A DNA stretch of 21,670 bases from a virus. Shown here piece by piece: positions 2,151 to 18,527 of this stretch. Position numbers and translations under genes: made by a program. Positions within the stretch are counted from its first letter, which is position 1. Each line of letters opens with the position of its first letter. The notes under the pieces are model-generated. The model was given only the letters and a program-made list of their open reading frames with translations, made no database searches and had not been told where the DNA came from. The stretch spans positions 1-21,670 of IMG/VR virus record IMGVR_UViG_3300017917_001006; one strand, written 5' to 3'.

Positions 2151-2226
<76 letters not shown>

Positions 2227-2230
2227 TTAT

Positions 2231-2305
2231 CGGTCCTTGGTGAAATGGATATCATGCTTGGCTTCGAACCAAGCGGTGTGGGTTCGATTCCTGCAGGACC
2301 GGCCA
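2231..2305 (+). tRNA. tRNA-Arg (anticodon TCG)
   Basis: Perfect 7-bp acceptor stem (2231-2237 with 2295-2301). The anticodon stem CTTGG/CCAAG closes loop CTTCGAA, giving anticodon TCG, which reads CGA (and CGG). T loop TTCGATT. Discriminator G at 2302 and encoded CCA 2303-2305. Only four bases separate it from the tRNA-Thr, so both probably come from one precursor. Confidence 0.93.
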
Positions 2306-2306
2306 A

Positions 2307-2381
2307 CCCGCTGTAGTTCAATGGATAGAACGGGGACCTCCTAAGTCTCAAATACAGGTTCGATTCCTGTCGGTGGGACCA
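2307..2381 (+). tRNA. tRNA-Arg (anticodon CCT)
   Basis: Acceptor stem 2307-2313 with 2371-2377 (two G-T pairs). The anticodon stem GGGAC/GTCTC closes loop CTCCTAA, giving anticodon CCT, which reads AGG. T arm ACAGG/CCTGT. Discriminator A at 2378, encoded CCA 2379-2381. One base separates it from the previous tRNA. A TTG-rich low-complexity stretch (about 2383-2400) follows. Confidence 0.92.
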
Positions 2382-2415
2382 TTGTTGTTGTAGTTGTTGT
2401 GAGAGAAAGAAGAAA

Positions 2416-2631
2416 ATGTTTGTAGTAAAATGGAAAGATGTAGCAGGTGTCTGCTACGAAAGAGAATTTGATAACTTAGGTCCTGCAATGGACTGGGCAA
2501 AGGCACTGGCTGTCTTTGTAACAATATCCGGTAAGGATTTCGAACTCGTAGGTATGTTTGGAGTTGACAGCATTGAAGATGGTGTTTGTCCAGATGGTAT
2601 CGCTTACGATTGGAAAAAGCGTAGAAAATAA
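2416..2631 (+). CDS. hypothetical protein
   Basis: 71 aa, ATG at 2416 preceded by a purine-rich GAGAGAAAGAAG tract that can serve as a ribosome binding site. The sequence starts FVVKWKDVAGVCYEREF, and has a helix (GPAMDWAKALA) and a strand (DFELVGMFGV), so a small alpha/beta domain is likely. The C-terminus is basic (WKKRRK). No catalytic residues stand out and the family is not recognised. It lies between the tRNA cluster and the promoter at 2645, with no terminator seen after it. Confidence 0.6.
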   Translation: MFVVKWKDVAGVCYEREFDNLGPAMDWAKALAVFVTISGKDFELVGMFGVDSIEDGVCPDGIAYDWKKRRK

Positions 2632-2644
2632 TTTTAAAAAATTG

Positions 2645-2673
2645 TTGACAGACACGCAAATTTCATATACAAT
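2645..2673 (+). promoter_or_regulatory. near-consensus sigma70 promoter for the leader RNA/TROVE unit
   Basis: TTGACA at 2645-2650, 17-bp spacer, TACAAT at 2668-2673 (one mismatch from TATAAT). Predicted start near 2680. It is followed by over 500 bases without a credible gene, which is the structured RNA described separately, and then by the TROVE-like gene. Confidence 0.8.
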
Positions 2674-2695
2674 AGATGTATTGAAACAGAGAATT

Positions 2696-2813
2696 ATAGG
2701 TTAGTTACAGCATCAATCTATTAACATAGAACCGAATGGGCAGAGATAACTTCACAGCCTATTCAAGCAGGAGTTGTTACCCTGTCTAATCAAGTAGCTA
2801 AAAACTAACCTGT
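2696..2813 (+). other. RNA module A
   Basis: P1 AGGTTAGTT (2698-2706) pairs with AACTAACCT (2803-2811), extendable by a T-G and an A-T pair. ACAGCA at 2707-2712 follows. P2 is TCTAT/ATAGA (2717-2721/2726-2730), then ACCG (2731-2734). P3 is 2734-2741 with 2757-2764 (8 bp, one G-T) with a 15-base loop. A further hairpin is CAGG/CCTG (2768-2771/2781-2784). Confidence 0.6.
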
Positions 2814-2821
2814 TTGTTTTC

Positions 2822-3110
2822 TTAGGATAGATACAGCAACCTTTAACTTTATAAAGACCGCAACTAATGCAGTAGAAGGTGGCCCGCAAGGCGAGATGCA
2901 CTGGAGCCTTAATTGGCTTTGAAGGTGCCCTCATAGCTAACATACCGCTTCCTCGGCGTATCAGAGGATGTTAGACACTAATGGAACTGACGACAGATTG
3001 GAAAGACTTTCTATGTTCATGTACAGAACTTACATGATAGGCTTGGGGAACTGAACCGATATACTGGGGATGGGGCCAAGCAGAAAATAAAAATCGTTCC
3101 GGCTATCCTG
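2822..3110 (+). other. RNA module B (with large insert)
   Basis: P1 AGGATAG (2824-2830) pairs with CTATCCT (3103-3109). ACAGCA at 2833-2838. P2 CTTTA/TAAAG (2841-2845/2852-2856), then ACCG at 2857-2860. P3 can form 2858-2864 with 3096-3102 with one mismatch and encloses a multi-helix insert. Insert helices are GCAC/GTGC (2898-2901/2925-2928) around AGCC/GGCT, CTAACAT/ATGTTAG, TCATGTA/TACATGA and GCTTGG/CCAAGC. A possible pseudoknot is CCTC (2951-2954) with GAGG (2964-2967). Confidence 0.55.
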
Positions 3111-3116
3111 TTGTAG

Positions 3117-3188
3117 TTAGGTTAATTACAGCATTTTTAATCGTATCATTAAAACCCGTAGGAAAAACGAATCCTACATTTAACCTGA
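3117..3188 (+). other. RNA module C (minimal copy next to the ribosome binding site)
   Basis: The shortest copy, about 72 bases. P1 AGGTTAA (3119-3125) pairs with TTAACCT (3180-3186). ACAGCA at 3128-3133. P2 TTTTAAT/ATTAAAA (3135-3141/3148-3154), then ACCCG (3154-3158). P3 GTAGGA/TCCTAC (3158-3163/3172-3177) has an 8-base loop. This is a clean three-way junction whose P1 3' strand abuts the Shine-Dalgarno at 3190-3193. Confidence 0.6.
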
Positions 3189-3200
3189 AAGGAAAGAAAA

Positions 3201-4610
3201 ATGAACGCTTTTGTTCAAGCAGTAGCAAATCAAGAAGCCCGTACCGCTAATGGTATGAAGGCTCGTAAGTCGACAGCTAAAAAGACTGTAGACTTGTTTT
3301 ACAACATCGGTGCAAGCCGTGGCAAGAATATCGTTCCTGCCTTTACAGCGGCTTATGTTGAAAACGCAGACATCGCTCTGCGTATTGCACAATGGGCTCG
3401 TGATGTCCGTGGCGGTGCTGGCGAACGTCAGTTGTTCCGTGACATCCTTGTCCATCTGGAAAAGACTAATCCAGATGCCGCTTTGACTCTGTTGAAGAAG
3501 GTACCGGAAGTTGGTCGTTGGGATGACATCTTTGTCTTCTCTACTCCTGCTCTTAAGAGCGCCGCTTATACCATGCTGGGCGATGCACTTCGTGCTCGTA
3601 ACGGCTTGGCTGCAAAGTGGACTCCTCGTAAGGGCAAGGTTGCGGCTGAAATCCGAGAATTCTTCGGAATGAGTCCAAAGCAATACCGTAAGAGTCTTGT
3701 GGCTCTTACTAAGGTTGTTGAAACACAGATGTGCGCCAACGACTGGGACAACATCAACTTTAGTCATGTTCCTTCTGTGGCTGCTCGCAACTACAAGAAG
3801 GCATTTAACCGTCATTCTGTAAAGTTTGCGGAATATGTAGCTAAGTTGGTTAGTGGTGATAAAACTGTTAAGGTTAACGCCGATGCAATTTTCCCACATG
3901 ATGTCCTGAAGGGTATTGCACATGCCTACAAGAGCTTTGACAAGACCGAAAAGGATCACGTCAAGGCACAGTGGGACGCTCTGCCAAACTATGTAGGTGA
4001 CGCAAGTATCCTACCTATCGTTGACGTCTCTGGCTCTATGACTTGCTCAGCAGGTAAGAGCGGTGCAACTCGTTGCATCGACGTGGCAGTTGGTCTGGGT
4101 CTGTACCTGGCGGATAAGAACAAGGGCGTGTTCAAGGACACATTCTTGACCTTCTCCGACAAGCCTGATCTTGTTACCCTTAAGGGTGACATCCTTCAGA
4201 AGCTTGACCAAATGGTTAAGAGCAACTGGGAAATGAGTACTAACCTGCATGCCGCTATGAACAAGATTCTTAGCGTTGCAGTTAAGAACTCTGTACCAGA
4301 AAGCGACATGCCAAAGATGTTGCTGATCCTGTCGGACATGCAGTTCAACCAATGCGCCAAGTTTGACAACAGCGCAATGGAAATGATTGAACGCAAGTAT
4401 GCAGAAGCAGGTTACACTGCTCCGCAAGTTGTGTTCTGGAACCTAAACGCAAGTGACAACGTTCCAGTCAAGTCTGACAAGAGCGGTGCTGCTCTGGTTA
4501 GTGGATTTAGTCCAAGCATCATGAAGGCTCTGCTTTCCGCTGATCTGGATCAATTCACTCCAGAAGGTATCATGCTTAAGACAGTCATGATTCCACGCTA
4601 CGACCTGTAA
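3201..4610 (+). CDS. TROVE/DUF2828-like RNA-binding protein with vWA domain (Ro60 type)
   Basis: 469 aa. The start is ATG 3201, with AAAGGAAAG at 3188-3196 upstream. Residues about 1-260 are helical-repeat-like and contain LFYNIGASRG (33-42) and ARDVRGGAGERQLFR (66-80), the signature seen in TROVE and DUF2828 proteins, whose HEAT-like ring in Ro60 binds Y RNAs and the ends of misfolded RNAs. The C-terminal part is a von Willebrand A domain with an intact MIDAS: DVSGS at 275-279, a distal Thr in FLTFSD, and an Asp in LILSDMQF. The preceding candidate RNA and tRNAs fit a ribonucleoprotein role, but binding is inference. Arg codons are almost all CGT/CGC (18 of 19), suggesting good adaptation to the host and high expression, unlike the genes downstream. 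The exact split between TROVE and DUF2828 families is uncertain. Confidence 0.8.
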   Translation: MNAFVQAVANQEARTANGMKARKSTAKKTVDLFYNIGASRGKNIVPAFTAAYVENADIALRIAQWARDVRGGAGERQLFRDILVHLEKTNPDAALTLLKKVPEVGRWDDIFVFSTPALKSAAYTMLGDALRARNGLAAKWTPRKGKVAAEIREFFGMSPKQYRKSLVALTKVVETQMCANDWDNINFSHVPSVAARNYKKAFNRHSVKFAEYVAKLVSGDKTVKVNADAIFPHDVLKGIAHAYKSFDKTEKDHVKAQWDALPNYVGDASILPIVDVSGSMTCSAGKSGATRCIDVAVGLGLYLADKNKGVFKDTFLTFSDKPDLVTLKGDILQKLDQMVKSNWEMSTNLHAAMNKILSVAVKNSVPESDMPKMLLILSDMQFNQCAKFDNSAMEMIERKYAEAGYTAPQVVFWNLNASDNVPVKSDKSGAALVSGFSPSIMKALLSADLDQFTPEGIMLKTVMIPRYDL

Positions 4611-4684: not shown

Positions 4685-5656
4685 ATGACTCATACAGTAC
4701 CATTTGACAGCATAGTAAGATTCGGCCAGCAGACAATGATGCACCATCCGCTCTTTTCCATAAGCTGGATTTTGGGAAGATTTTGTAATTACAAATGCTC
4801 TTATTGTTGGCCATATGCACGATCGGATAATGTTGATCACTTGCCATTAGAAGTCTATAAGTCGGCAGTGGATGAAATAAAAAAGCAAGCAAGAAGCAAT
4901 GGATTTGATCGATTCCACTGGAGTATGAGTGGAGGGGAACCTACAGCGTATAAACATCTTATAGATTTGGTAAAACACATGGACGATATCACAGTGCCTT
5001 ACCAAAGCATACATATGACCACTAATTTAAGTGCTGGCAGCAAATGGTGGAAGAGCTGGTGCGATGCAACATCGGCTTGGCAACGAAGAAGTATCACAGC
5101 AAGTTATCACGAAGAATTTGCCAAAGAAAAAGACTTCAGTGAAAAATGCCTACAACTAATAGACCAAACTGTTTTCGTTACAATCAATCAAGTTATGGTT
5201 CCGGAAAGATTTTATGAATTGTACGATAGGTGTCAGCGTTTTTATGACATGGGAATCAACGTAACATTGAAACCGCAAAGCGACCCTACTGCCAGTAAAG
5301 TAGTATCTGGGTACAATGATGAGATGATCCATTTAATGCAAACTGGATTTCCGCAACAGTTTGCAGGCGAAGAAATACATCAAGTTGCATTATACGACGA
5401 CAACAATTCTGAATATCTGTTTGATCAAGCAGAACGATTTAACGCATTTGGATTTAACAAGTTTAAGGGTTGGAGTTGCAATAGTGGTTATCAAAGTGTT
5501 ATAATTAGGAGTAATGAAGTTAAGCGTGGTTACAGTTGCCACGATACTCCCTTGGGAACATTAACAGAAGGTTTTGACCTATTTAAAAGCCCCCAGAGAT
5601 GCATCACTCCAAGTTGCATAAGTTCAGCTGATAGTAAAATACCTAAATGCAAATAA
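4685..5656 (+). CDS. radical SAM protein with C-terminal Cys-rich (SPASM-like) region
   Basis: 323 aa. The radical SAM [4Fe-4S] motif CNYKCSYC is at residues 34-41 (Cys 34, 38, 41), and GGEP is at 83-86 for SAM binding. The C-terminal cysteines 265 (GWSC), 285 (GYSC), 306, 311 and 322 suit one or more auxiliary clusters of SPASM/twitch type, as found in enzymes acting on peptides or proteins. It is a clear paralogue of the gene at 8715 (shared FCNYKC, a WW-containing segment after the third strand, and SxHxEFA). It overlaps the methyltransferase-like gene by 10 bases. Of its 14 Arg codons, 12 are AGA, CGA or AGG. An alternative start is the Met pair at residues 18-19 (ATG 4736). Substrate unknown. 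Confidence 0.85.
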   Translation: MTHTVPFDSIVRFGQQTMMHHPLFSISWILGRFCNYKCSYCWPYARSDNVDHLPLEVYKSAVDEIKKQARSNGFDRFHWSMSGGEPTAYKHLIDLVKHMDDITVPYQSIHMTTNLSAGSKWWKSWCDATSAWQRRSITASYHEEFAKEKDFSEKCLQLIDQTVFVTINQVMVPERFYELYDRCQRFYDMGINVTLKPQSDPTASKVVSGYNDEMIHLMQTGFPQQFAGEEIHQVALYDDNNSEYLFDQAERFNAFGFNKFKGWSCNSGYQSVIIRSNEVKRGYSCHDTPLGTLTEGFDLFKSPQRCITPSCISSADSKIPKCK

Positions 5657-6240
5657 ACACCGAACACTTACATTACTGGATGCAGGCCATAAGACAGAGT
5701 CCGGACCCTATGAGGACCATGGATGCTTTTTGGAGCGGTCAACTTAAAAGTAAAGAATGGTTAATTGAAAATCTGTCAAAGTTTGTCAAAAGAAGATCTA
5801 ATATTGACATACATGGAGGTTGGGTAGGTGTGCTGGCCAGTATGCTATTTCAAAGTAGTATACCTATTAACAATATTCGAAGTATTGATATAGATCCGAC
5901 GTGCGAGCCGATTGCATCTATGATGAATAAGTTAGAAGAAATGACTGGTAGATTTAACGCAGTAACCGCAGACATGTGTTCAGTCCGGAGTGCCTCAGAT
6001 ATCATTATTAATACCAGTTGTGAACATATAACGCAACCACAATACGAACTATGGCTAAGTAAGGTACCAAGCACAAGTTTATTAGTATTGCAGAGTAATA
6101 ACTATCGCATCGACGAACATATTAGACCTGCAGATTCTTTAGAAGAATTTGCACTACAATCTAAGATTGATATCAAATGGCAAGGTCAGTTAGAGTTGCC
6201 GCTATACACACGATGGATGATCATAGGACATAATGTTTAA
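5647..6240 (+). CDS. class I SAM-dependent methyltransferase-like protein
   Basis: 197 aa. The middle follows a Rossmann methyltransferase pattern: a glycine loop HGGWVGVL (residues 56-63), an acidic strand end SIDIDPTCEP (79-88) expected to hold the SAM ribose, a second Asp in VTADM (107-110), and INTSCEH (121-127) at the strand-4 position where catalytic motifs usually lie. The first 50 residues are helical and may form a cap. The ATG at 5647 overlaps the end of the preceding radical SAM gene, and its stop overlaps the next radical SAM gene by 8 bases, so the three are translated together. Substrate unknown. An alternative is a Rossmann protein that only binds SAM. Confidence 0.65.
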   Translation: MQINTEHLHYWMQAIRQSPDPMRTMDAFWSGQLKSKEWLIENLSKFVKRRSNIDIHGGWVGVLASMLFQSSIPINNIRSIDIDPTCEPIASMMNKLEEMTGRFNAVTADMCSVRSASDIIINTSCEHITQPQYELWLSKVPSTSLLVLQSNNYRIDEHIRPADSLEEFALQSKIDIKWQGQLELPLYTRWMIIGHNV

Positions 6241-7297
6241 ATTTAATGAGTTAAAACAGCTACATTTAGAAATTACAAATAACTGTCAGGCCAGTTGTCC
6301 TATGTGCAGTAGAAACCATCACGGCGGACAGAGTAACCCGTTAATCAAAATAACTGAATGGTCTTTTGACGATTTCAAAAACATCATAACACAAGAAGTA
6401 TTAGATCAAGTCAGTAGCATTTACTTCTGCGGAAACTTTGGAGACCCACTGTTAAATGATAACTTGCCTGCTATGTGCAATTACATCAAAGACAACAGTC
6501 AAGTATCAATAAGAATACATACTAACGGCAGTCTTAGAAACGAATCATGGTGGAAATCCTTGGCTTCAAAGATGCCAAAAAATCATATTGTTATTTTTGC
6601 AATTGACGGACTTGAAGATACCCACTCAAGATACAGAATAGGAACTGATTACTCAAAGATTATTAAGAATGCCAAAGCCTTTATTGATGCAGGCGGAAAA
6701 GCAGAGTGGGCCTACATAGTATTTGAGCACAATGAGCACCAAGTTGAAACAGCAAGAAGTCTTTCAAAACAGTTAGGCTTTACAAGGTTTACTGTAAAGA
6801 ACAGTAGTAGGTTTGTTGGCGATAGTAAATTTCCTGTATACAACGACAAAGGGGAAACAGTTGACACACTTTACCCTACTAAAAATTCTGTAATCAAATT
6901 TATCGACAAATCTGCGTTGAACAAATACAAAGAAATAGTTGCGGAGGCCGAAATAGATTGTTATGTATTAAAGACTAAAGAAGTTTATATAGATGCCTAT
7001 AAAAATTTATTGCCTTGCTGCTTCTTAGCATCTGCTCCGTACAACTACACAGAACCTAACAGTTTAATCTTTGAAGTGCGACAAGAAATACTCGATCAGT
7101 ACAACAGTCTAATATCAGATTTAGGAACTATAAACACTTTAGAAAAATCAGTAAAGAGCATAATCGACTCTGACGAATATCAAACTGTTTGGGATGATTA
7201 CTGGGGATCTAAAAAATTAATAACCTGCGCCAGAACTTGCGGGAAAAACGAGTTCTCAAAACCAATTGATCAATTCGTAGAAAAGAAATTAACATGA
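6233..7297 (+). CDS. radical SAM protein, FGDP variant
   Basis: 354 aa. CQASCPMC at residues 18-25 gives Cys 18, 22 and 25 of the radical SAM cluster. The SAM-binding loop after strand 2 reads CGNFGDP instead of GGEP. Near the C-terminus is a half-SPASM-like element, VYIDAYKNLLPCC, followed by further cysteines (ITCARTC). It is closely similar over its length to the gene at 18528, with shared EITN.CQASCPMC, NTNGS-type, RIGTDF/Y and YIDA segments, so the pair are paralogues placed 11 kb apart. It overlaps neighbours by 8 and 4 bases. The family resembles SPASM-type enzymes that act on peptides or carbohydrates; the actual substrate cannot be told. Confidence 0.85.
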   Translation: MFKFNELKQLHLEITNNCQASCPMCSRNHHGGQSNPLIKITEWSFDDFKNIITQEVLDQVSSIYFCGNFGDPLLNDNLPAMCNYIKDNSQVSIRIHTNGSLRNESWWKSLASKMPKNHIVIFAIDGLEDTHSRYRIGTDYSKIIKNAKAFIDAGGKAEWAYIVFEHNEHQVETARSLSKQLGFTRFTVKNSSRFVGDSKFPVYNDKGETVDTLYPTKNSVIKFIDKSALNKYKEIVAEAEIDCYVLKTKEVYIDAYKNLLPCCFLASAPYNYTEPNSLIFEVRQEILDQYNSLISDLGTINTLEKSVKSIIDSDEYQTVWDDYWGSKKLITCARTCGKNEFSKPIDQFVEKKLT

Positions 7298-8718
7298 ACA
7301 ACAACACTTCACCTGTATTCTGGTTACAGCCCGAAGACACACAGTTAGGCAAATGGCAAAATAAGATTGCCAACATGTCTAAGTCTCCTACCTTTTGCGT
7401 ACTACCTTGGATACATTTTGCAACAAGACCTAATGGAGATATGCGTCTATGCTGTAGTGCTAATTCCAGTGGAGCAGGAGAAAATCACACTATTGGATTG
7501 GTGAAGAACGAAAGTGGACGCCCGGCAAACTTCGGAAGAGAAACTCCAATGAGTGCATGGAACAACGGTTATATGAAGAGCGTTCGCACTACCATGTTAG
7601 ATGGGCATATCCCTGCCAGTTGTACTAAGTGCTTTGATGAAGAGTCTAAAGGCGTGGCCAGTAAAAGAATATGGGAAACTGGTACCTGGGTACAAGAAGG
7701 AATTGACATTGAGGAACTAATTGCTCAAACACAAGAGGATGGGACTGTTCCTGAAAAGTTAACGTATCTTGATCTAAGATTAGGTCACACCTGTAACATT
7801 AAATGTGTGATGTGCAGTCCGCACGACAGCAGTCAATGGGTAGCTGACCACAAAAAAGTATATCCTCTGTTTGAAGCAAAAGAACTTAAACAGCAGATGC
7901 ATTGGGATCGTAAAAAGTTTAACAACTTTTGGCATGAGAATCCCGACTTCTGGAAAGAAATGTATGCTCAGATTCCTAACCTAAAGCAGGTTTATTTTGC
8001 AGGCGGCGAGCCGTTGATGATCAAAGAGCATAAACTGTTCTTAGAAGAAATCATTAGGCAAGGGTATGCAGATAAAATTCTTGTACGCTACAATACTAAT
8101 GGTCTATTAATATCTGAAGATATTATCAAGCTCTGGGAAAAATTTAAAAAAGTAAAAATTGGATTCAGTATTGATGCGATAGGAGATAAGAACTATTACA
8201 TACGCTACCCCAGCGATTGGAATACCATTGTAAAAAACCTAAACCGACTTGATAATACTCCGGACAATATACAGGTAAGTATAGCAACAGCTATTCAGAT
8301 TCTTAATATCAAACATCTACCCGATTTTGCCAAGTGGAAGATTGAACAAAATTTTAAGAAAATAAACTTTGAAAATGTTACGGCAGGCGTAGAAGCAGGC
8401 GGCGGCATTTTTAATATGCACTTGATATATATTCCCACATATCTAAGTATTAAATGTTTGCCCGCAGCTGATAAAATAGAAGTAAGAAAAAAGTTCGAAG
8501 AGTTGAAAACTTGGCTGTACAACAATTATAGACAAGATGATGATTTTTGGAAAGACAATCCCTACGGATGGAAGCGCTGGCAAGCAGTTTTAGACTTTAT
8601 GGATTCTGAGGACCATAGTCATTTGTTACCTGTCTTTAAGGAATACATAGAAAAATTAGAACAACTTAGGAAAACTAATTTTGTTGAAACATTTCCAGAG
8701 TTATCGCACCTATTATGA
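7294..8718 (+). CDS. radical SAM protein with N-terminal twitch domain (N_Twi_rSAM type)
   Basis: 474 aa and two-part. Residues about 30-120 form an N-terminal twitch-like cluster domain: FCVLPW (Cys35), PNGDMRLCC (Cys53/54), a WN...R...L.G block, and CTKC (Cys110, 113). The radical SAM core follows, with CNIKCVMC at 167-174 and AGGEPLM further on. Having the auxiliary-cluster domain before the barrel is the mark of the N_Twi_rSAM group, known mainly from phage and marine sequence data and without an assigned reaction. Paralogues lie at 10733 and on the minus strand at 14575. The start is in ATGA overlap with the previous gene. It is longer than its paralogues because of an insert between the two domains (about 115-155). 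Confidence 0.87.
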   Translation: MNNNTSPVFWLQPEDTQLGKWQNKIANMSKSPTFCVLPWIHFATRPNGDMRLCCSANSSGAGENHTIGLVKNESGRPANFGRETPMSAWNNGYMKSVRTTMLDGHIPASCTKCFDEESKGVASKRIWETGTWVQEGIDIEELIAQTQEDGTVPEKLTYLDLRLGHTCNIKCVMCSPHDSSQWVADHKKVYPLFEAKELKQQMHWDRKKFNNFWHENPDFWKEMYAQIPNLKQVYFAGGEPLMIKEHKLFLEEIIRQGYADKILVRYNTNGLLISEDIIKLWEKFKKVKIGFSIDAIGDKNYYIRYPSDWNTIVKNLNRLDNTPDNIQVSIATAIQILNIKHLPDFAKWKIEQNFKKINFENVTAGVEAGGGIFNMHLIYIPTYLSIKCLPAADKIEVRKKFEELKTWLYNNYRQDDDFWKDNPYGWKRWQAVLDFMDSEDHSHLLPVFKEYIEKLEQLRKTNFVETFPELSHLL

Positions 8719-9686
8719 TTAATGAAATAGACAACGATGTTCCCGATAACATGTTAAGAATTGAATACATGTTAGGAAACTTCTGCAATTACAAATGTCA
8801 TTATTGCTTCCCTGGCAGCAATGAGGGAGATGTGTCATGGCCAGACATCGCAGTTGTTAAGAACAATCTATATCATTTATTAACTCATTATAAAAAGTAC
8901 GGTAAAAATAAGTTTCATTTTTACCTTGTCGGTGGCGAACCAACTGTGTGGAAAGACCTTCCAGAATTATGCAATTTTTTAAAATCTAACTTTGATGTAA
9001 TAATAGAGTTAAGTACAAATGCATCGAGAAGTTTAAGATGGTGGACTGAGAATTTAAATAACTTCGACCATATTGCAATCAGTGTGCATAACGAATTTGC
9101 AAAAATAGATCATATCATTGAAGTTGCAGACATGCTGTACCATAACGGTGCATATGTAAATGCAGATGTGCTTATGGATCCAAACAATTTTGATGCGTGT
9201 AAAGACATTGTTAACGCACTGTTTGATAGCCAACACAATTGGCCTATAATTGCAAAAGCTGTCTACTTCGACGGATTACATAAGCATACACAAGACCAGT
9301 TAGAATATCTTAAAGAACCTATAAAAAGAATGCCCAGTATGGAGTGGCATAATTCGACTACTAAAAAACCCGTAGTTACTACTACTATAAAATATAGTAA
9401 TGGTGAAATAGTAAACACAATTGACGACGGTTGGATTAAGAAAAATAACTTGAACTTTTTCTATAATTGGTCATGCAACATTGGCGTAGAAATTATAAAA
9501 ATTTTTGGCAATGGTAGAATCTCGAGCAATTGCCAACAACCCCTGTATGGACTTAATACTGAGTTTAATTTGTATGATTCTAATTTTATCGAAACGTTCG
9601 ATGTTCCAATAGTACCAACAACTTGTAAACAATTAATTTGTCCCTGTAATAGAGAAACCGTTGCTAAAAAAGTAAAACATGCCTGA
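8715..9686 (+). CDS. radical SAM protein with C-terminal Cys-rich region
   Basis: 323 aa, the same length as its paralogue at 4685. CNYKCHYC at residues 24-31 holds the cluster, and VGGEPTVW is the SAM loop. The third-strand region has STNAS and RWW, then ISVHNEFAK. The tail has WSCNIG, SSNCQ and TCKQLICPC, enough cysteines for an auxiliary cluster. ATGA overlap with the upstream twitch gene and 8-base overlap downstream place it in the same polycistron. Lys and Asn are frequent and the gene is AT-rich. Substrate unknown. Confidence 0.85.
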   Translation: MINEIDNDVPDNMLRIEYMLGNFCNYKCHYCFPGSNEGDVSWPDIAVVKNNLYHLLTHYKKYGKNKFHFYLVGGEPTVWKDLPELCNFLKSNFDVIIELSTNASRSLRWWTENLNNFDHIAISVHNEFAKIDHIIEVADMLYHNGAYVNADVLMDPNNFDACKDIVNALFDSQHNWPIIAKAVYFDGLHKHTQDQLEYLKEPIKRMPSMEWHNSTTKKPVVTTTIKYSNGEIVNTIDDGWIKKNNLNFFYNWSCNIGVEIIKIFGNGRISSNCQQPLYGLNTEFNLYDSNFIETFDVPIVPTTCKQLICPCNRETVAKKVKHA

Positions 9687-10740
9687 GTTCAATACATTAA
9701 AGCCCGTAAAGAATCTTACATTTCAAGTTGCATGGGAGTCAACTTTGAAGTGTAATTTAGATTGTAGCTATTGCGGCGACGGTCACGACAACACCCAGTC
9801 TCACCCTCCATTGGCTGAGTGTCTTTCAACGGTGGATTTTATAACCGAGTATTTGGACATTCAAATGTCTAAAAAGACTGCTCCTTTAAAGAAAGCAAGT
9901 CTAAACATACAAGGCGGCGAAAGTATCTTTCATCCTAACATTGTTGAAATTTTACAGTATATTAGATCTAAGAAAGCATCCTACGAAACTTGGCGCCTCA
10001 GTGTCAGTCTAATTACAAATGCAATCAGTGGCAAAACAAGATGGAGTGAAATTGTTGACCTTGTAGACTATTTTACTATCAGTTATCATAGCGAAGCCAA
10101 TGACAAGCAACAGGATCTATTCAAAGATAATGTTTTATACCTAAAAGAAAAAAACAAAAACTTTCATGTTGCAATATTGATGCATCCTAAAAAATGGGAA
10201 AGATGTCAGAACATGATCGAATGGTGTAAGGCCAATGACATAAAGTATTTGCCAAGACAATTAGATCATCATTGGCTCGATTTTAGATTTAACTACAATA
10301 ATGAACAAGTAGAATTTTTAACAGGTAAGCCTCCTGTATCTACAGCTAAGAAAGTAATTGCTATTGTATCTAAAGGATTTGATCTTTCCGAGCAAGGCAG
10401 AGCTTGTTGCGGCGGCAATGAAATGTGTTTAGACGGAGAGAAGACTTCTTATGTTAACGGTAATAACTTCAAAGGATGGAGTTGCTCTGTTGATAAATTC
10501 TTTCTTTATATTAGGCAAACTACCGGAGAAATTTTTACCAACAAAGATTGCCGTATGAACTTCGACGGTAGCATTGGACCAATTGGAAATTTAGCCAATA
10601 CCAAGCCGTTGTTAGACAGAGTAAAAACAGAAACCGATACTATTGTCTGTAAGAAATCATCTTGCTGGTGCGGGCTGTGTGCGCCAAAGGCAGCATTACA
10701 GGATGAGTATACTGAATTAATGAAGCAGTATCATGTCTAA
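9679..10740 (+). CDS. radical SAM protein, GGES variant, with SPASM-like tail
   Basis: 353 aa. CNLDCSYC at residues 25-32 is the cluster motif. The usual GGEP reads QGGES here. The C-terminal third has a dense set of cysteines: ACCGG, EMC, FKGWSCSVDKFFLY, a KDC, and CKKSSCWCGLCAPKA at the end. The minus-strand gene at 11868-12917 has the same tail order (FKGW.CSVD.YFL, then CGCGMCVPKAE), so these two are paralogues. Such tails in SPASM proteins hold two extra [4Fe-4S] clusters and contact peptide substrates; that is family knowledge, not seen here. It overlaps both neighbours by 8 bases. Confidence 0.85.
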   Translation: MPEFNTLKPVKNLTFQVAWESTLKCNLDCSYCGDGHDNTQSHPPLAECLSTVDFITEYLDIQMSKKTAPLKKASLNIQGGESIFHPNIVEILQYIRSKKASYETWRLSVSLITNAISGKTRWSEIVDLVDYFTISYHSEANDKQQDLFKDNVLYLKEKNKNFHVAILMHPKKWERCQNMIEWCKANDIKYLPRQLDHHWLDFRFNYNNEQVEFLTGKPPVSTAKKVIAIVSKGFDLSEQGRACCGGNEMCLDGEKTSYVNGNNFKGWSCSVDKFFLYIRQTTGEIFTNKDCRMNFDGSIGPIGNLANTKPLLDRVKTETDTIVCKKSSCWCGLCAPKAALQDEYTELMKQYHV

Positions 10741-11875
10741 ATTTTGCATAGTACCGTGGGCACAGATAGAAGTGAGTCCTTCGGGCGATGTTCGGCCCTG
10801 TTGCGAATATGAATCTTCCATGGGAAACATTAACCACAGAGACAGTAGTATTATAGAAGTATGGAATAATGATCGCTTTAAACAATTAAGGCAAGATTAC
10901 TTAAATGGTGTTGAACCTGTAGGTTGTGCCAAATGTCAACAGTGCGAAGATGTTGGAATTAAATCAAGAAGGCAATACGAAAATAAAAAGTATAAACATC
11001 TTTTTGATAGAGCAGTATCGGCCGATGCACTTGCACCTGCAATGATGGACATTAAGTTTGGAAATATATGCAACATTAAATGCAGAATATGTTCAAGTAA
11101 AAATAGCCATGTCTGGAAAAGAGACGAAAAGCAATTATTCGGATTTACGACTATAGAAGATGCTCCGCAAAGTTGGGTAGATATCGATTCAAGGTGGAGT
11201 GAGTTATCTGCCTTTATTGATAACTTAGAAGTTCTTTATATAAGTGGCGGCGAACCTTTATTGATTAAGAAAAATTACGAGTTCTTCCGAGCATGTATTG
11301 AAAAGAATAAATCTAAAAACATCAGTGTACGAATACTAACTAATGGAACGATTGCATTAGAACCCGAATTAATTGAACTGTTAAAACATTTCAAACATGT
11401 TTATATAGGCTACAGTATAGATGACCTGGGCGAAAAGTTCAATTATCAAAGAAATCCTGCAAAGTGGGATAGGGTAGAAAAGAACTTTATCGATGCTTTA
11501 AAATATAACTTTATCCATGTCGGTATTTCTTATTCTATTAGCATCTTTAATGTGTTATCTGGATCTGAATTTATTAAATGGTGTGACAACATTAAATTTC
11601 CTACAGGTAATATTGTAAGAAACTTTGTTAGACATCCTAACCACTTTGATGTAAGTATGTTAATGCCCGAAGAAAAAGAGCAGATCCTAACGCTATTAGG
11701 AAACAATGTTATAGATAATGATATTAGGAACTATCTAACATCGACTTTTACCAATCATTCACTGGCCAATGTCCGAGATAATAGAATAAAAATTATCAAG
11801 GGAATTGACCAATTAAGAAATGAACAGTTTAATCAAGTGTTTCCAGAACTAAATCGAATACTAAAAATTATCTAA
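10733..11875 (+). CDS. radical SAM protein with N-terminal twitch domain
   Basis: 380 aa, the most compact of the three twitch-first proteins. Twitch part: FCIVPW (Cys5), PSGDVRPCC (Cys23/24), WNN..F..LR, and CAKCQQC (Cys65, 68, 71). Radical SAM core: CNIKCRIC at 113-120, SGGEPLL, and TNGT. The C-terminus ends in an FPELNR-type helix also found in the other two paralogues. It is the last gene of the first plus block. Its stop lies 8 bases inside the convergent minus-strand gene, and no terminator is visible at the junction. Confidence 0.87.
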   Translation: MSKFCIVPWAQIEVSPSGDVRPCCEYESSMGNINHRDSSIIEVWNNDRFKQLRQDYLNGVEPVGCAKCQQCEDVGIKSRRQYENKKYKHLFDRAVSADALAPAMMDIKFGNICNIKCRICSSKNSHVWKRDEKQLFGFTTIEDAPQSWVDIDSRWSELSAFIDNLEVLYISGGEPLLIKKNYEFFRACIEKNKSKNISVRILTNGTIALEPELIELLKHFKHVYIGYSIDDLGEKFNYQRNPAKWDRVEKNFIDALKYNFIHVGISYSISIFNVLSGSEFIKWCDNIKFPTGNIVRNFVRHPNHFDVSMLMPEEKEQILTLLGNNVIDNDIRNYLTSTFTNHSLANVRDNRIKIIKGIDQLRNEQFNQVFPELNRILKII

Positions 11876-12917
11876 TATTGAGATATTCTTCGAGAGTTTC
11901 TGCTTTAGGGACACACATTCCGCAGCCACATCGATTATTTGGACAGACAATGATGTTATCTCTGTTCTCTTTTACATAATTAAAAATTTCTTCAGGCTGG
12001 TCCAAATTACCAATCGCTCCCTTTTTTCCTGTGTGGGTTGCTTGGCATGTTTGATGATGGTATACCAGACCTGTTTCTTGATCGATATGCAAGAAGTATC
12101 GATCTACACTGCAATGCCATCCTTTGAAATGAGTATCTACAAGGTTAACAGTTTGCCATTGATCATTAACTTTTCCTTGTACGCATCTTCCGCCGCAACA
12201 ATTTCTACCTAACTCAGTGCCTTGTTTTTTTGCAGTAGTATTAGCTGGCAATCCCATACGTTTAAAGTACCATGCCTGTTGTTCTTCAGTATATTCGTGA
12301 CTGGTTCTTCTCAGCGTGCCGTCGGTATCAGTAAACCATCCTACTCGAGTAACGTTACCATCACCGATAGGTCTTGGGTTATACTGGACACCTTCTTTGT
12401 CTAATAGCTCGCACACTTGAACACATTCGTCCCAGTAATCGGCGTGCATCATAACATTAACTTTTAGAGCAATTTTACTCTTATGCAGTTCTAAAATATT
12501 TTTGACTACATTGTTTTTAAGAGTTTTGTCTGACTCAGCATGATAACTGACAGTTACCCATTTAAATGATTCAACAATAGTTGGTACAAACTTTGTACTA
12601 AATGCTCCGTTAGTAGTTAGACCTAATTTAAAATTTGGATTAGTCTTGGCATATTCTACAAAGTCAAAGAATATAGGATTAACTGTTGGTTCGCCGCCAG
12701 TGAAATTGATGTTTGCATTTTCCAGTCCGTACAATTTTATATATTCATTGATAAAGTCAAATGTCTTTTTTAGTTCAGAAAGAGAACTATGTTTGCTAAT
12801 GTTATTATGTCGTGTTGCCTCGCAATAGGTGCAGTCGTAATTACAACGTCTGCCCAGCTCCCATGTCACCATTAACGGTTCGGGATTTTTTAACTTAATC
12901 GCTATTGTCTTGATCAT
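11868..12917 (-). CDS. radical SAM protein with SPASM-like tail
   Basis: 349 aa, first of the island genes whose 3' end meets an opposing gene. CNYDCTYC at residues 25-32, FTGGEPTVNP as SAM loop, LTTNGAFS. The tail repeats the pattern of the 9679 gene: CCGGRC, FKGWHCSVDRYFL, HHQTC, and CPNNRCGCGMCVPKAE. It overlaps the preceding minus gene (12895) by 23 bases, so it is translated downstream of that gene. It retains the canonical GGEP that its paralogue at 9679 has lost. Confidence 0.86.
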   Translation of the reverse strand: MIKTIAIKLKNPEPLMVTWELGRRCNYDCTYCEATRHNNISKHSSLSELKKTFDFINEYIKLYGLENANINFTGGEPTVNPIFFDFVEYAKTNPNFKLGLTTNGAFSTKFVPTIVESFKWVTVSYHAESDKTLKNNVVKNILELHKSKIALKVNVMMHADYWDECVQVCELLDKEGVQYNPRPIGDGNVTRVGWFTDTDGTLRRTSHEYTEEQQAWYFKRMGLPANTTAKKQGTELGRNCCGGRCVQGKVNDQWQTVNLVDTHFKGWHCSVDRYFLHIDQETGLVYHHQTCQATHTGKKGAIGNLDQPEEIFNYVKENRDNIIVCPNNRCGCGMCVPKAETLEEYLNIR

Positions 12918-13809
12918 TTTTTATTTTTGTTAAAGGTATGTCAGCCGCACAGGTACACCAGTCTCTTGTACATTTAATAGGTTCGTTAGCGGCTAAGAAT
13001 GTTCCGTTGTAAATATTTCCTAAACTATCACCTACTCTACAAGTAGCGCGATGGACATCTCCGTCCCAATTAATCATAAGACTTTCGATGCCTGCATAAC
13101 ACATCCAATCTTTGTACTTGTTTTTGTGCAGTTTAATAACGTCATTGGCATGAAGTAATTCTTCTTTGTCTTTATACACTATTACAGTGTTAGGAGATAC
13201 AGTAGCTTCTTGTCCTATCAACCATTTGTAATCATCAGGATGGTATCTCATATCATCGAAAATGTTATGATCACCTTCTGTCCATCTTATTCTTCTAACA
13301 GTATTAGGAATCTGATCATTAGTTAATGCCGCTCTAACTATCATAACACTATCCATCATGTTATGATGTGCCATTATTTGACCTATGACTTTGATTGCCG
13401 TATGCTCTGCTATTTCTCTTAAGGTGTTTACAGCTTTCATCCAATCGTATTCAAAATGTATGCTGAATACATATTGGTCAACTGGCAGTGAAGAATAAAA
13501 TTCAACAGGCAGTGTGCCATTGGTTGTTACGCCAATCCACGGTATTCCTACATGCTTACAATACTGTACAAGTTCTTTAAACTTAGGATGAACAGTTGGC
13601 TCTCCCCCAGTGAAACTAAGACGTATAGGTTTGCCTAAAGTCATTAATTTGTCCACAGTCGACTTAAGAACATTAATATCAGTATGCGGACTGTTGTTAT
13701 CATGTATGCTGCTTGGGCAATAACTGCAATCGTAGTTACACCTCTTTCCGAGATTCCACTCGACTTTGATACTGCTCTGGTGAGGCCACCTATTAGTTAC
13801 TTTAATCAT
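12895..13809 (-). CDS. radical SAM protein with C-terminal Cys-rich region
   Basis: 304 aa. CNYDCSYC at residues 24-31, FTGGEPTVHP as SAM loop, VTTNGTLP. The tail has MCYAGIESLMINWDG, ATC, and CTRDWCTCAAD, a shortened version of the SPASM-like tail in the neighbouring minus gene. Its N-terminal half is similar to the 11868-12917 gene (shared W.LGxRCNYDC.YC and GGEPTV.P.F), so the two are probably an old tandem duplication. It overlaps the PP-loop ATPase gene upstream by 4 bases, which couples a radical SAM enzyme to an adenylating enzyme. Confidence 0.85.
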   Translation of the reverse strand: MIKVTNRWPHQSSIKVEWNLGKRCNYDCSYCPSSIHDNNSPHTDINVLKSTVDKLMTLGKPIRLSFTGGEPTVHPKFKELVQYCKHVGIPWIGVTTNGTLPVEFYSSLPVDQYVFSIHFEYDWMKAVNTLREIAEHTAIKVIGQIMAHHNMMDSVMIVRAALTNDQIPNTVRRIRWTEGDHNIFDDMRYHPDDYKWLIGQEATVSPNTVIVYKDKEELLHANDVIKLHKNKYKDWMCYAGIESLMINWDGDVHRATCRVGDSLGNIYNGTFLAANEPIKCTRDWCTCAADIPLTKIKNDQDNSD

Positions 13810-14582
13810 AGATGATTAATTTTCAAAGCCCAGTTTCTTTCTTGACACCAAAAACATTTTCCGCACATTGGTACCATTTGCCCGGGTACATAGTTTTTAT
13901 AATTGATATGACTAAATTCTCCTTCACAACTTCTTGTGATTTCAAATAAGTCCATGAGGTCATTGTTTATATATTGTTTGACTATCCAATCTTTAGCAAT
14001 ATATTTGAAAGGATGACACGCCCAAATGCCTTCATGTTCGACCATAATAGATCTTAAATCCGTTAACTCTGTAACATTCCTATCGGGCATTCCTTTGCTT
14101 GAAAATTCCTCCGGTGGATTCTTTGTAATACCAGCAAACCAAGCATTTATATTGTTTGTGATACAAATATATTCAGCATGTGATCTGGTACTAATTTGAT
14201 CTCCGCCCTTCATCTGTCCGTAAGTATCTTTAATAATTGGACCAATATTCCCATATTCAATTTCAGGAGAAATAAAGTTTTCATGCCTGTAGAATTTTAA
14301 AGACGGAAATCTTTTTACTAACCAATTAAAGACATCTAAGCTGTTATATTTTTGCCAAGGTCGTGTTTTCCACATCCTAACATTACTAATAACATGAACT
14401 TCTATGTTTAAACCTAATGTAACTATTGTATTACATATTAGATAAGATAGCAATGCACTGTCAGCACCACCGCTAACGCTGAGAGAAACTTTTTTCCATT
14501 CGGGATGCATTGGAAAATATACTCCGTCAACTTCTCGAATGTAGTCTTTTAGACTGTGCTGATCAATCAATTGCTTAAACAT
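13806..14582 (-). CDS. QueC-like PP-loop ATPase
   Basis: 258 aa. SGGADS at residues 37-42 is the PP-loop (SGGxDS) of N-type ATP pyrophosphatases, which adenylate a carbonyl or similar oxygen. The C-terminus carries Cys219, Cys240, Cys243 and Cys246 in the order C-x20-C-x2-C-x2-C followed by QERNW. QueC, the 7-cyano-7-deazaguanine synthase, has a zinc site of this form at the same end (C...CxxCxxC..R). The middle differs strongly from classic QueC, and no QueD, QueE or FolE partner is in the window, so a new substrate is at least as likely as a deazaguanine. A paralogue lies at 17210 on the plus strand. Overlaps: 8 bases with the twitch gene, 4 with the next radical SAM gene. Confidence 0.75.
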   Translation of the reverse strand: MFKQLIDQHSLKDYIREVDGVYFPMHPEWKKVSLSVSGGADSALLSYLICNTIVTLGLNIEVHVISNVRMWKTRPWQKYNSLDVFNWLVKRFPSLKFYRHENFISPEIEYGNIGPIIKDTYGQMKGGDQISTRSHAEYICITNNINAWFAGITKNPPEEFSSKGMPDRNVTELTDLRSIMVEHEGIWACHPFKYIAKDWIVKQYINNDLMDLFEITRSCEGEFSHINYKNYVPGQMVPMCGKCFWCQERNWALKINHL

Positions 14583-15888
14583 AATTTTTAAATTCAGGAA
14601 CTGCGTCTAATAAATTTTGTTTTCTGGTAGAATCTAATCCAAGATTAAACTCAACAAAATCTTTCCACAAATGGTATTGATCTTTAGCCTGCAAATAGTT
14701 AATGTTGTCTTTAATTTGCTGGTGCGTTACTTTACCTAAGAGAGGATTCTTTTTAACAGCTTCCCAAGAATCGACTCGAAGGCTAACAGATTGCAATCTT
14801 TTAATTGCAAGGTCTTTTAGATCAAAAGGTAAGACTTGTGCAGATAGGCAGTTAGGATAACTGACCCTGTGACTGTAGAATACAATGTTCATTTTGTTAA
14901 TGAAGTAGTCGATACATTCTGCTGCCTGTAATATGTTACCTGCTTGTGCAGTGAATGCTCCAACTACTCGGCTTACATTAGGAATTTTTTGTATTTCTTT
15001 AATGTTATCTTCTAACTGACTAAAGTCGCCGTTGCCGCGAATGTAGTTATAAACATCGTGAATGCCGTCTATGCTGACGTTAACTGCAACACTTCTAAAG
15101 TGAGGCCAGTAGTCGTGTATTGTTCGTCCTTGACTAATACCTAACGTTGTTCCATTTGTTGCATACTTAATTTCGATGTTCTTGCCGTAGGGTTTCAACA
15201 TATCTAAAATTCGATAATGCTGAGGATCCATTAGAGGCTCTCCTCCTGCAAACTCTACACGCCTAAAATAAGGTAGCAACTTTTCAAAACTGGCCCACCA
15301 GTTGTCTGTATCGTCAAACGCACCTATATACTTTCCTGGCTTATCCACTAAGTTGTCAATTGTGTTTACTAAAAAGTTTTTTTCTTTTTTGTAAAATGGA
15401 ACAACCGTATTCCAATCTTGCCAACTGGTGCTATCCAATGGATTGCACATGCGACATTTTAAATTGCATAGATTATTGAGCTTGATCTCCATAGTAGGAA
15501 ATTCAAAAGGCATAATTTCCTGCAAAGGAGTATTTGGATATAGGTTAATACGTGCTTCAGGAATAACTCCATTGATGTGACGTTGTCTTAAACTCTCAAC
15601 ACCTTGGTCCTCTAAATCAAAACAGGGCTTACAGACGTCAGGCCTTTCACCATTTAGCACCTGTCGACGGACAAGTTGCATGGTTTCATTATTCCAAATT
15701 TCTTCCAGACTGTTATCTTTGATGTGACCAATCGGCGCACTGCGACAACAAACTTTGACTGCACCGTCTTCTCTTGTCGCCAAACCTGTAAATGGATGTA
15801 AGCAAAATGTTTTACTTTGGGTATTCAATGAAATTCCTAACAAGTTAAAAATATTTAGTGGCATTATCATGGTATATAAATATTTCAT
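14575..15888 (-). CDS. radical SAM protein with N-terminal twitch domain
   Basis: 437 aa if the outermost ATG is used. FCLHPF (Cys29), DGAVKVCC (Cys47/48), WNN.....R...L.G and CKPC (Cys86, 89) form the twitch part. CNLKCRMC at 141-148 and AGGEPLM belong to the radical SAM barrel, with ATNGT and VSIDG following. The C-terminus ends in FPEF-like VPEFKNYV. The start is uncertain: ATGs at 15888, 15870 and 15864 are in frame and none has a clear ribosome binding site. The two inner ones would reduce or avoid overlap with the divergent plus-strand gene. First gene of the minus block. Confidence 0.84.
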   Translation of the reverse strand: MKYLYTMIMPLNIFNLLGISLNTQSKTFCLHPFTGLATREDGAVKVCCRSAPIGHIKDNSLEEIWNNETMQLVRRQVLNGERPDVCKPCFDLEDQGVESLRQRHINGVIPEARINLYPNTPLQEIMPFEFPTMEIKLNNLCNLKCRMCNPLDSTSWQDWNTVVPFYKKEKNFLVNTIDNLVDKPGKYIGAFDDTDNWWASFEKLLPYFRRVEFAGGEPLMDPQHYRILDMLKPYGKNIEIKYATNGTTLGISQGRTIHDYWPHFRSVAVNVSIDGIHDVYNYIRGNGDFSQLEDNIKEIQKIPNVSRVVGAFTAQAGNILQAAECIDYFINKMNIVFYSHRVSYPNCLSAQVLPFDLKDLAIKRLQSVSLRVDSWEAVKKNPLLGKVTHQQIKDNINYLQAKDQYHLWKDFVEFNLGLDSTRKQNLLDAVPEFKNYV

Positions 15889-16555
15889 GCTGTCACAACT
15901 ACCCTATACCGTTCCTCAAGATTTATTAAAGGTAGCATCAACATATAACACAGACGAATTCCGACAGTCAATTAACAAACCGACTGGGGACTTTTTCTAT
16001 GATCCTTGGATTATCAAAGAAGAGTTTATCGGAACTCCGTGGGAAAAGATCCTCCAAACATTGCCTTTCAATGTAGGCGAAGCAAGAATAATAACATTAA
16101 AGCCCGGAACGTGTTATACTGTACATGCCGATATCGACGATAGATACCATTTGTCAATATCTGGCGATCATAGTTATCTGGTCGATCTTGAAAATAACGA
16201 CATCCATAAAACACAGCAGGACGGTATTTGGTACGATATGGACGCAGGCCGATTACATAGTGCAGTAAACTTTGGACGTCTACCTCGGGTACAGTTGGTG
16301 ATTAGAAAGTTATTAACCAAGACTAATTTAAAAAATCCATTAGATATCAAAGTAACTACAAATATATCTAACTTAGATAAAGCAAGATTCGATTTTGATC
16401 AACAGATTAGTTGTTGGCTAAACCGAGCAAACAAGAGAAAAATAATATCTAATTTTTTATATGAAGGTGCAGTTGTTTCTTTTAAATTAGAATCTGAATA
16501 TATTGAAGAATTTAGACAATGTGCTGGCAAAAGTTTTAATGTAGAGCTGATATGA
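15869..16555 (+). CDS. Fe(II)/2OG-oxygenase-like protein (Asp/Asn beta-hydroxylase-like) with C-terminal extension
   Basis: 228 aa from the ATG at 15869; the ATG at 15887 would give 222. A longer open frame to 15755 is antisense to the twitch gene and was not used. Counting from 15887, HAD at residues 80-82, His124 and Arg134 match the HxD...H...R iron and 2-oxoglutarate ligands of jelly-roll oxygenases. They are set in LKPGTCYTVHADIDD and GRLHSAVN..RLPRVQLVIR, which resembles aspartyl/asparaginyl hydroxylase-type folds. About 80 further residues follow with no motif. It overlaps the next gene by 4 bases. Oxygenase activity is inferred from the ligands only. Confidence 0.68.
   Translation: MVYKYFMLSQLPYTVPQDLLKVASTYNTDEFRQSINKPTGDFFYDPWIIKEEFIGTPWEKILQTLPFNVGEARIITLKPGTCYTVHADIDDRYHLSISGDHSYLVDLENNDIHKTQQDGIWYDMDAGRLHSAVNFGRLPRVQLVIRKLLTKTNLKNPLDIKVTTNISNLDKARFDFDQQISCWLNRANKRKIISNFLYEGAVVSFKLESEYIEEFRQCAGKSFNVELI
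15875..15882 (+). promoter_or_regulatory. TATAAATA box (T4 late promoter-like) in the divergent region
   Basis: An exact match to the T4-type late promoter core TATAAATA, on the plus strand, within the short space where the minus-strand twitch gene and the plus-strand oxygenase-like gene diverge. Transcription starting about 6 bases on would give an almost leaderless message from the ATG at 15887. Chance occurrence in AT-rich DNA is quite possible. Confidence 0.3.
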
Positions 16556-17944: not shown

Positions 17945-17955
17945 CTGATTATTAA

Positions 17956-18525: not shown

Positions 18526-18527
18526 TC

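What the first reader, a model, noticed from the sequence alone, without database searches (positions are those of the whole stretch)
2680..3190. Three tandem copies of one RNA module with compensatory base changes
Three segments repeat the order P1 strand, NT, ACAGCA, P2 hairpin, ACCG or ACCCG, variable P3 region, P1 complement. P1 in module A is AGGTTAG/CTAACCT, in B AGGATAG/CTATCCT, in C AGGTTAA/TTAACCT. The A-to-B change T-A to A-T and the A-to-C change G-C to A-T both keep pairing, so the duplication has been kept as RNA structure. P2 keeps pairing with wholly different sequence in each copy. I do not recognise the module. It could be a tandem aptamer or a large ornate noncoding RNA.
Basis: seen in the sequence. 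Interest (0 to 1): 0.88.

Follow-up and report, generated by a model that had tools for sequence, protein, structure and literature searches.

The report
Phage Y-RNA-like array beside Ro60 gene
Three structured RNA modules sit in a row just before a phage gene for a Ro60-like RNA-binding protein; relatives in hundreds of phages and in bacterial chromosomes share the same short RNA 'handle' but carry different cargo, often copies of tRNA parts, which points to a large and so far undescribed class of tRNA-mimicking Y-type RNAs.

Summary
Window 2697-3189 has three modules, each 7-bp P1 + 2 nt + ACAGCA + cargo + P1' + G. Across phages P1 covaries at all seven pairs (98.6% paired, 91 compensatory cells, 0/500 shuffles) and CAGCA is invariant. 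The array lies between a sigma70-like promoter and a 469-aa gene whose predicted fold is Ro60/TROVE (Foldseek top nine hits). The same handle lies beside this gene in phages of many hosts and beside chromosomal homologues. It also lies downstream or tens of kb away in tRNA clusters, so it is not only a leader. It is absent from four phages lacking the gene. Cargo is the surprise: anticodon stem-loops, D/anticodon/T-arm bodies, circularly permuted tRNAs with 7/7 acceptor pairs (weak Rfam YrlA hits), and a 250-nt domain with a covarying pseudoknot. A close relative's array holds a permuted tRNA next to modules homologous to window B and C. Best reading: a multi-module Y RNA array; P1/CAGCA is the Ro60 dock, and module C, 14 nt before the start codon, probably autoregulates. 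Binding is inferred, not shown. Phage Y RNAs are known; this handle and mixed-cargo array I found described nowhere.

The parts
2645..2673 (+). sigma70-like promoter TTGACA-17-TACAAT (11 of 12); expected start near 2680, just before module A
   Evidence: only such site in 2380-3260, but 1.9 looser ones are expected by chance
2697..2814 (+). module A: P1 AGGTTAG/CTAACCT (2698-2704/2805-2811), ACAGCA 2707-2712, ~90-nt cargo with three hairpins
   Evidence: z -3.87; handle model R1 E 2.6e-4
2823..3112 (+). module B: P1 AGGATAG/CTATCCT (2824-2830/3103-3109), ACAGCA 2833-2838, ~250-nt cargo with two internal helices and a pseudoknot
   Evidence: 24 homologues, 95.6% paired, 13 pairs with double changes, 0/500 shuffles
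3118..3189 (+). module C: P1 AGGTTAA/TTAACCT (3119-3125/3180-3186), ACAGCA 3128-3133, hairpin plus T-arm-like hairpin GTAGG..CCTAC; ends 14 nt before the start codon
   Evidence: R1 E 2.2e-6
3189..3196 (+). Shine-Dalgarno-like AAGGAAAG directly after module C
   Evidence: sequence
3201..4610 (+). Ro60/TROVE-like protein, 469 aa (DUF2828 + DUF7788; PHROG 850 'RNA-binding protein')
   Evidence: AlphaFold pLDDT 89.5; Foldseek top nine PDB hits all Ro60/TROVE, E 1e-9 to 7e-7
2151..2381 (+). three tRNA genes (Thr, Arg, Arg) upstream of the array; same kind of neighbourhood as distant modules in other phages

Best explanation
The region is an array of three Y-RNA-like noncoding RNA modules that serve the Ro60-like protein encoded next to them. 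Each module has a common docking handle: a 7-bp stem whose sequence differs from module to module, then an internal loop with invariant CAGCA. Each carries a different cargo. The handle most likely binds the Ro60-like ring (inferred). The cargo then presents a tRNA-like or other RNA surface to an effector such as a ribonuclease or a tRNA-binding enzyme, or blocks the ring (inferred from known Y RNAs). Module C, 14 nt before the start codon, probably also lets the protein repress its own translation (inferred). Shown: the modules, the covariation, the predicted Ro60 fold, the co-occurrence with the gene, cargo exchange between arrays, and tRNA mimicry in relatives' arrays.
For: P1 covariation. 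Within one array only 1 of 347 module pairs share P1 and 2.3% could cross-pair, against 9.8% between loci, as if insulated from each other. Protein fold is Ro60, including a Thermus phage Ro60 among the hits. Handle model R1 hits 15 of 20 named phages with the gene that contributed nothing to the model (13 at E<0.005) and 0 of 4 without it; the five misses have visible handles. Handle arrays lie beside chromosomal homologues: 88 against 5.8 expected, up to nine in tandem. Fourteen modules are circularly permuted tRNAs, 12 with 7/7 acceptor pairs. YrlA hits fall exactly on them (E down to 4.8e-7) and recur in bacterial loci. Relative L058 has permuted tRNA, mid, B-type and C-type modules in one array. 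Short cargos with strict anticodon-type loops: 18/117, against 3/915 gene-body windows.
Against: No binding data. The window's own modules show no YrlA match up to E 10 and none of its three cargos is a clear tRNA mimic. YrlA hits in relatives stay below the gathering score (46-48 against 69 bits). The handle sequence (CAGCA) differs from the YrlA consensus handle (AUGC). About 16% of phage loci with the gene show no perfect module within 700 nt upstream. In Listeria phage CKA15 the one abundant noncoding RNA with published coordinates (26,236-26,727) lacks the handle.
Confidence: 0.77

Rival explanations
1. A cis-acting leader: the modules are riboswitches or protein operators that only control the Ro60-like gene downstream.
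For: Module C sits 13-15 nt before the start codon in most loci. Some phages have only this one module next to the gene (L069, L071, Stenotrophomonas DLP_6).
Against: The same handle lies downstream of the gene in JoeDirt and SEP9, and 10-50 kb away, in OC and S13 inside tRNA clusters. In L072 a 12/12 promoter separates module B from module C. Three different cargos are not expected of a ligand sensor.
Confidence: 0.12
2. Decoys: the cargos imitate tRNA parts so that host anticodon nucleases and other tRNA-attacking defences cut or bind the mimic instead of real tRNA; the Ro60-like protein protects or stores them. (Overlaps with the best explanation: it is one possible job of the same RNP.)
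For: Anticodon stem-loops for Thr, Cys, Met, Phe, Tyr, Ser, Ile, Lys and Arg anticodons, permuted and direct tRNA bodies, different cargos within one array. Phage tRNAs are argued to counter such nucleases (PMC10264068, PMC11555353). A nuclease-inhibitor role was suggested for YrlA (PMC7790460).
Against: No defence test. Many cargos, including the window's A and B, are not clear tRNA mimics. Arrays also occur on bacterial chromosomes.
Confidence: 0.25
3. Scars of tRNA genes: modules are decaying tRNA pseudogenes or insertion remnants.
For: Some cargos are recognisable tRNA pieces, and modules lie in tRNA clusters.
Against: P1 covaries perfectly while cargo changes. CAGCA is invariant. Permuted tRNAs keep 7/7 acceptor pairs. 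B is not a tRNA yet is conserved, with a pseudoknot.
Confidence: 0.02
4. Self-cleaving or splicing RNA, such as a new ribozyme with P1 and conserved core.
For: Stem plus invariant core and exchangeable loops resembles ribozyme anatomy; B has a pseudoknot.
Against: No Rfam ribozyme match. The core CAGCA is only five invariant bases. Strict link to a Ro60-like gene.
Confidence: 0.03

Closest known systems
Bacterial Y RNA, YrlA (Rfam RF02553)
   Same: Encoded beside a Ro60-family gene; ends paired into a basal stem with an internal loop; relatives carry a circularly permuted tRNA-like domain (T-arm, closed acceptor, D-arm) in the same order, and RF02553 hits exactly those modules.
   Different: Handle core CAGCA instead of AUGC; tandem arrays of up to nine modules; most cargos are not the YrlA domain (anticodon loops, direct tRNA bodies, 250-nt domain); all hits below the gathering score; no hit in the window.
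Ro60 / Rsr / TROVE proteins
   Same: Predicted fold: Ro60 chains, Deinococcus Rsr and Thermus phage phiLo Ro60 are the top hits.
   Different: Belongs to the DUF2828/DUF7788 branch by sequence; Pfam vWA_Ro60 is far below cut-off.
Listeria phage CKA15 abundant noncoding RNAs (PMC12282133)
   Same: Highly transcribed noncoding regions upstream of a homologous gene; the authors suggest Y RNAs.
   Different: No motif, handle or structure given. The handle array lies at 25,289-25,553 next to the gene; the region with published coordinates has no handle.
Mycobacteriophage Y RNAs (Chen et al. 2014 as cited in PMC12282133; paper not held)
   Same: Phage Y RNAs were reported by bioinformatics; JoeDirt has three handle modules after its 'Ro-like' gene, one with a permuted tRNA.
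   Different: I could not read whether arrays, anticodon-loop cargos or CAGCA were described there.

Membership tests
Bacterial Y RNA (YrlA, RF02553) | gene next to a Ro60/Rsr gene | tested here: met
   co-occurrence
Bacterial Y RNA (YrlA, RF02553) | 5' and 3' ends form a basal stem with an internal loop | tested here: met
   P1
Bacterial Y RNA (YrlA, RF02553) | tRNA-like domain (D, T, closed acceptor) in the module | tested here: not met
   window A, B, C: no RF02553 match to E 10. Met in sister modules of relatives' arrays
Bacterial Y RNA (YrlA, RF02553) | score above Rfam gathering threshold (69 bits) | tested here: not met
   best 46-48 bits in relatives, none in window
Bacterial Y RNA (YrlA, RF02553) | binds the Ro60-family protein | not testable with these tools
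   needs biochemistry
Ro60/TROVE protein | helical-repeat ring plus vWA fold | tested here: met
   AlphaFold pLDDT 89.5, Foldseek top nine all Ro60/TROVE; prediction, not a solved structure
Ro60/TROVE protein | Pfam Ro60 model above cut-off | tested here: not met
   vWA_Ro60 13.5 against 27.7 bits; DUF2828 and DUF7788 above cut-off
Riboswitch / cis leader | element confined to the leader of the controlled gene | tested here: not met
   modules downstream and 10-50 kb away
GOLLD, ROOL and other Rfam families | covariance-model match | tested here: not met

The most novel reading that the evidence does not exclude
A general 'handle plus cargo' RNA system. Ro60-like proteins of the DUF2828 branch, in phages and bacteria, each carry an array of RNAs with one docking handle and interchangeable cargos that copy different parts of tRNA and other RNAs, working as a multi-valent decoy or adaptor set against tRNA-targeting defences or for steering ribonucleases.
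Probability: 0.3. Interest if true: 0.92.

Novelty: new variant of a known kind. Interest (0 to 1): 0.78.

Why it matters
682 of 50,697 phage records in the collection encode this Ro60-like protein, usually named only 'hypothetical' or 'RNA-binding'. The handle gives a simple, searchable signature for its likely RNA partners, explains some 'tRNAs' called inside the modules (Oscillibacter), and yields testable RNAs in laboratory phages such as Felix O1 and P100 relatives. It could show what phages want with Ro60, and whether Y RNAs are tRNA decoys, an open question raised for YrlA.

Tried and rejected
Rfam at gathering and permissive thresholds on the window: nothing relevant. DNA search of the array in named phages: no match, too diverged. 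Search with the APT65 protein gave one locus only. First P1 register for the pair count was three columns off; corrected and rerun. Alignment A4 split the 3' strand of P1 and was dropped for A5. RNAalifold on B recovered only three helices; the pseudoknot was found by hand and then counted. ARAGORN at low threshold on modules gave mostly noise. CKA15 region 26,236-26,727 tested as an independent check: no handle. Anticodons of short cargos compared with neighbouring phage tRNAs: no clear rule. The per-position P1 counts are biased by the pairing requirement; only one search is used as the covariation test. Key Y RNA papers (Chen 2014, Sim 2020) are not held.

Full report
What is there. Window 2697-3189 (+) holds three modules, each P1 (7 bp), two nucleotides, ACAGCA, cargo, P1', G. 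Coordinates of every stem are in the parts list. They lie between a sigma70-like promoter at 2645-2673 and an ORF at 3201-4610, after three tRNA genes and a small ORF. Module A's start fits the expected transcription start; module C ends 14 nt before the start codon.

The gene. Pfam gives DUF7788 (E 1e-49) and DUF2828 (E 2e-27), with only a sub-threshold trace of vWA_Ro60. PHROG 850 calls it RNA-binding protein. An AlphaFold model from 36 relatives (pLDDT 89.5, pTM 0.89) matches Ro60/TROVE structures as its nine best PDB hits: 9kop, 1yvr, 2i91, 1yvp, 9l5y (Thermus phage phiLo), 9nfa and 2nvo (Deinococcus Rsr), E 1e-9 to 7e-7; the remaining hits are generic vWA domains. 682 phage records encode homologues.

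Covariation. I aligned the last CAGCA element before the start codon of 50 loci without asking for pairing. CAGCA is invariant, P1 pairs in 98.6% of cells, all seven pairs show double changes (91 cells), 0 of 500 shuffles reach this, and slid registers drop to 27-44%. Across 140 upstream regions, CAGCA with a perfect 7-bp P1 occurs 186 times in 117 regions, against a mean of 7.5 for other letter orders (the overlapping shift ACAGC gives 130; the next 25) and 4 in gene bodies. P1 sequences within one array are almost never the same (1 of 347 pairs) and rarely able to cross-pair (2.3% against 9.8% between loci).

Distribution. The handle is found next to the gene in Synechococcus BUCT-ZZ01, Stenotrophomonas DLP_6, Sinorhizobium phiM12, Rhizobium RHph_I1_18 and Aeromonas APT65, Campylobacter PC14, Listeria LP-048 and Enterococcus PEF1, and downstream of it in Felix O1, Mycobacterium JoeDirt and Staphylococcus SEP9. 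A covariance model R1 (P1 only, 53 short modules) was run on whole phage records. It hits 15 of 20 named DUF2828 phages that contributed no sequence to it, 13 at E<0.005, and none of T4, phiKZ, SPO1, P-SSM2, which lack the gene. E-values are rough. The window's own modules were found by it too (C 2.2e-6, A 2.6e-4). In Ochrobactrum OC, Cronobacter S13, Citrobacter Ci1 and Aeromonas Ah1 the modules lie 10-50 kb from the gene; in OC and S13 they are inside tRNA clusters. A trans-acting RNA fits; a pure leader does not. In L072 a perfect promoter separates B from C. Chromosomal homologues in Clostridia, Akkermansia, Chloroflexi and others carry the handle as well: 88 against 5.8 expected in 43 loci, nine in tandem in L257, four before the gene in the complete genome of Oscillibacter valericigenes. 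Some of these contigs may be prophage or mis-binned phage; the Oscillibacter one is a complete chromosome.

Cargo. Three tRNA-like classes recur. (i) Anticodon stem-loops: strict C-U-NNN-A loops closed by at least 4 bp in 18 of 117 short modules, against 3 of 915 gene-body windows; a broader loop pattern with at least 5 bp occurs 17 times against 1.3 in shuffles. (ii) Circularly permuted tRNAs: T-arm first, acceptor closed by a cap, D-arm last; 12 of 14 have 7/7 acceptor pairs, and one cap still reads ACCA. Rfam YrlA hits land exactly on these (10 of 11 loci, 30-46 bits, below the 69-bit gathering score), and again in four bacterial loci. (iii) D-arm, anticodon arm and T-arm bodies in normal order within the handle, for example the 'tRNA-Met' of Oscillibacter. 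A fourth class is module B of the window: ~250 nt, conserved in close and moderately distant phages, with two covarying internal helices and a pseudoknot (24 sequences, 95.6% paired, 13 pairs with double changes, 0/500 shuffles). I do not know what it imitates. Of 126 arrays with two or more modules, 119 mix cargo classes as I defined them.

Why this bears on the window. The window's modules are not YrlA by any model. But in L058, a close relative, one array holds a YrlA-like permuted tRNA, a mid-size module, and modules homologous to window B and C, all with the same handle. The handle is therefore the shared part and the cargo is swapped.

Mechanism. Known: YrlA's basal stem binds Rsr and its tRNA-like domain binds PNPase (reviewed in PMC8394870); a nuclease-inhibitor role was proposed for YrlA (PMC7790460). 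Inferred here: P1/CAGCA is the dock for the Ro60-like ring, cargos present different surfaces, and module C doubles as an operator before the ribosome binding site. Whether cargos are decoys for tRNA-targeting defences is open; phage tRNAs have such a role proposed or shown (PMC10264068, PMC11555353). In Listeria phage CKA15, abundant noncoding RNAs upstream of the homologous gene were noted and Y RNAs suggested (PMC12282133). The handle array is adjacent to that gene, but the one abundant region with published coordinates has no handle, so this is compatible, not confirming.

Limits. No binding, expression or function data. P2 in short modules is only weakly supported. Viral loci are partly redundant. 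The main Y RNA papers could not be read, so the novelty claim rests on the open-access library (ten searches) and on Rfam 15.

Noticed in passing
window 4685-19610: Nine or more radical SAM proteins in a row (some with SPASM), with two QueC/ATP-pyrophosphatase-like proteins and small proteins of unknown kind: an unusual phage cluster downstream of the Ro60-like gene.
   Followed up: partly
L284 2270-2365, L280 1551-1655, L271 2332-2426: 'tRNA' genes called by ARAGORN and Rfam lie inside handle modules, so some annotated bacterial tRNAs next to DUF2828 genes are probably tRNA mimics.
   Followed up: partly
L203 3237-3728 (CKA15 26,236-26,727, minus strand): The most abundant noncoding RNA of Listeria phage CKA15 has no CAGCA handle; it may be a different structured RNA near the same gene.
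   Followed up: no
L144, L160, L163, L187 modules of 205-258 nt: Permuted-tRNA-like modules with long insertions between the two acceptor strands, including long paired extensions.
   Followed up: no
L197, L097, L199: RNA ligase or RtcB-like genes close to the Ro60-like gene in several phages (Listeria LP-048, Munch, XbC2), as in bacterial RNA-repair operons.
   Followed up: no
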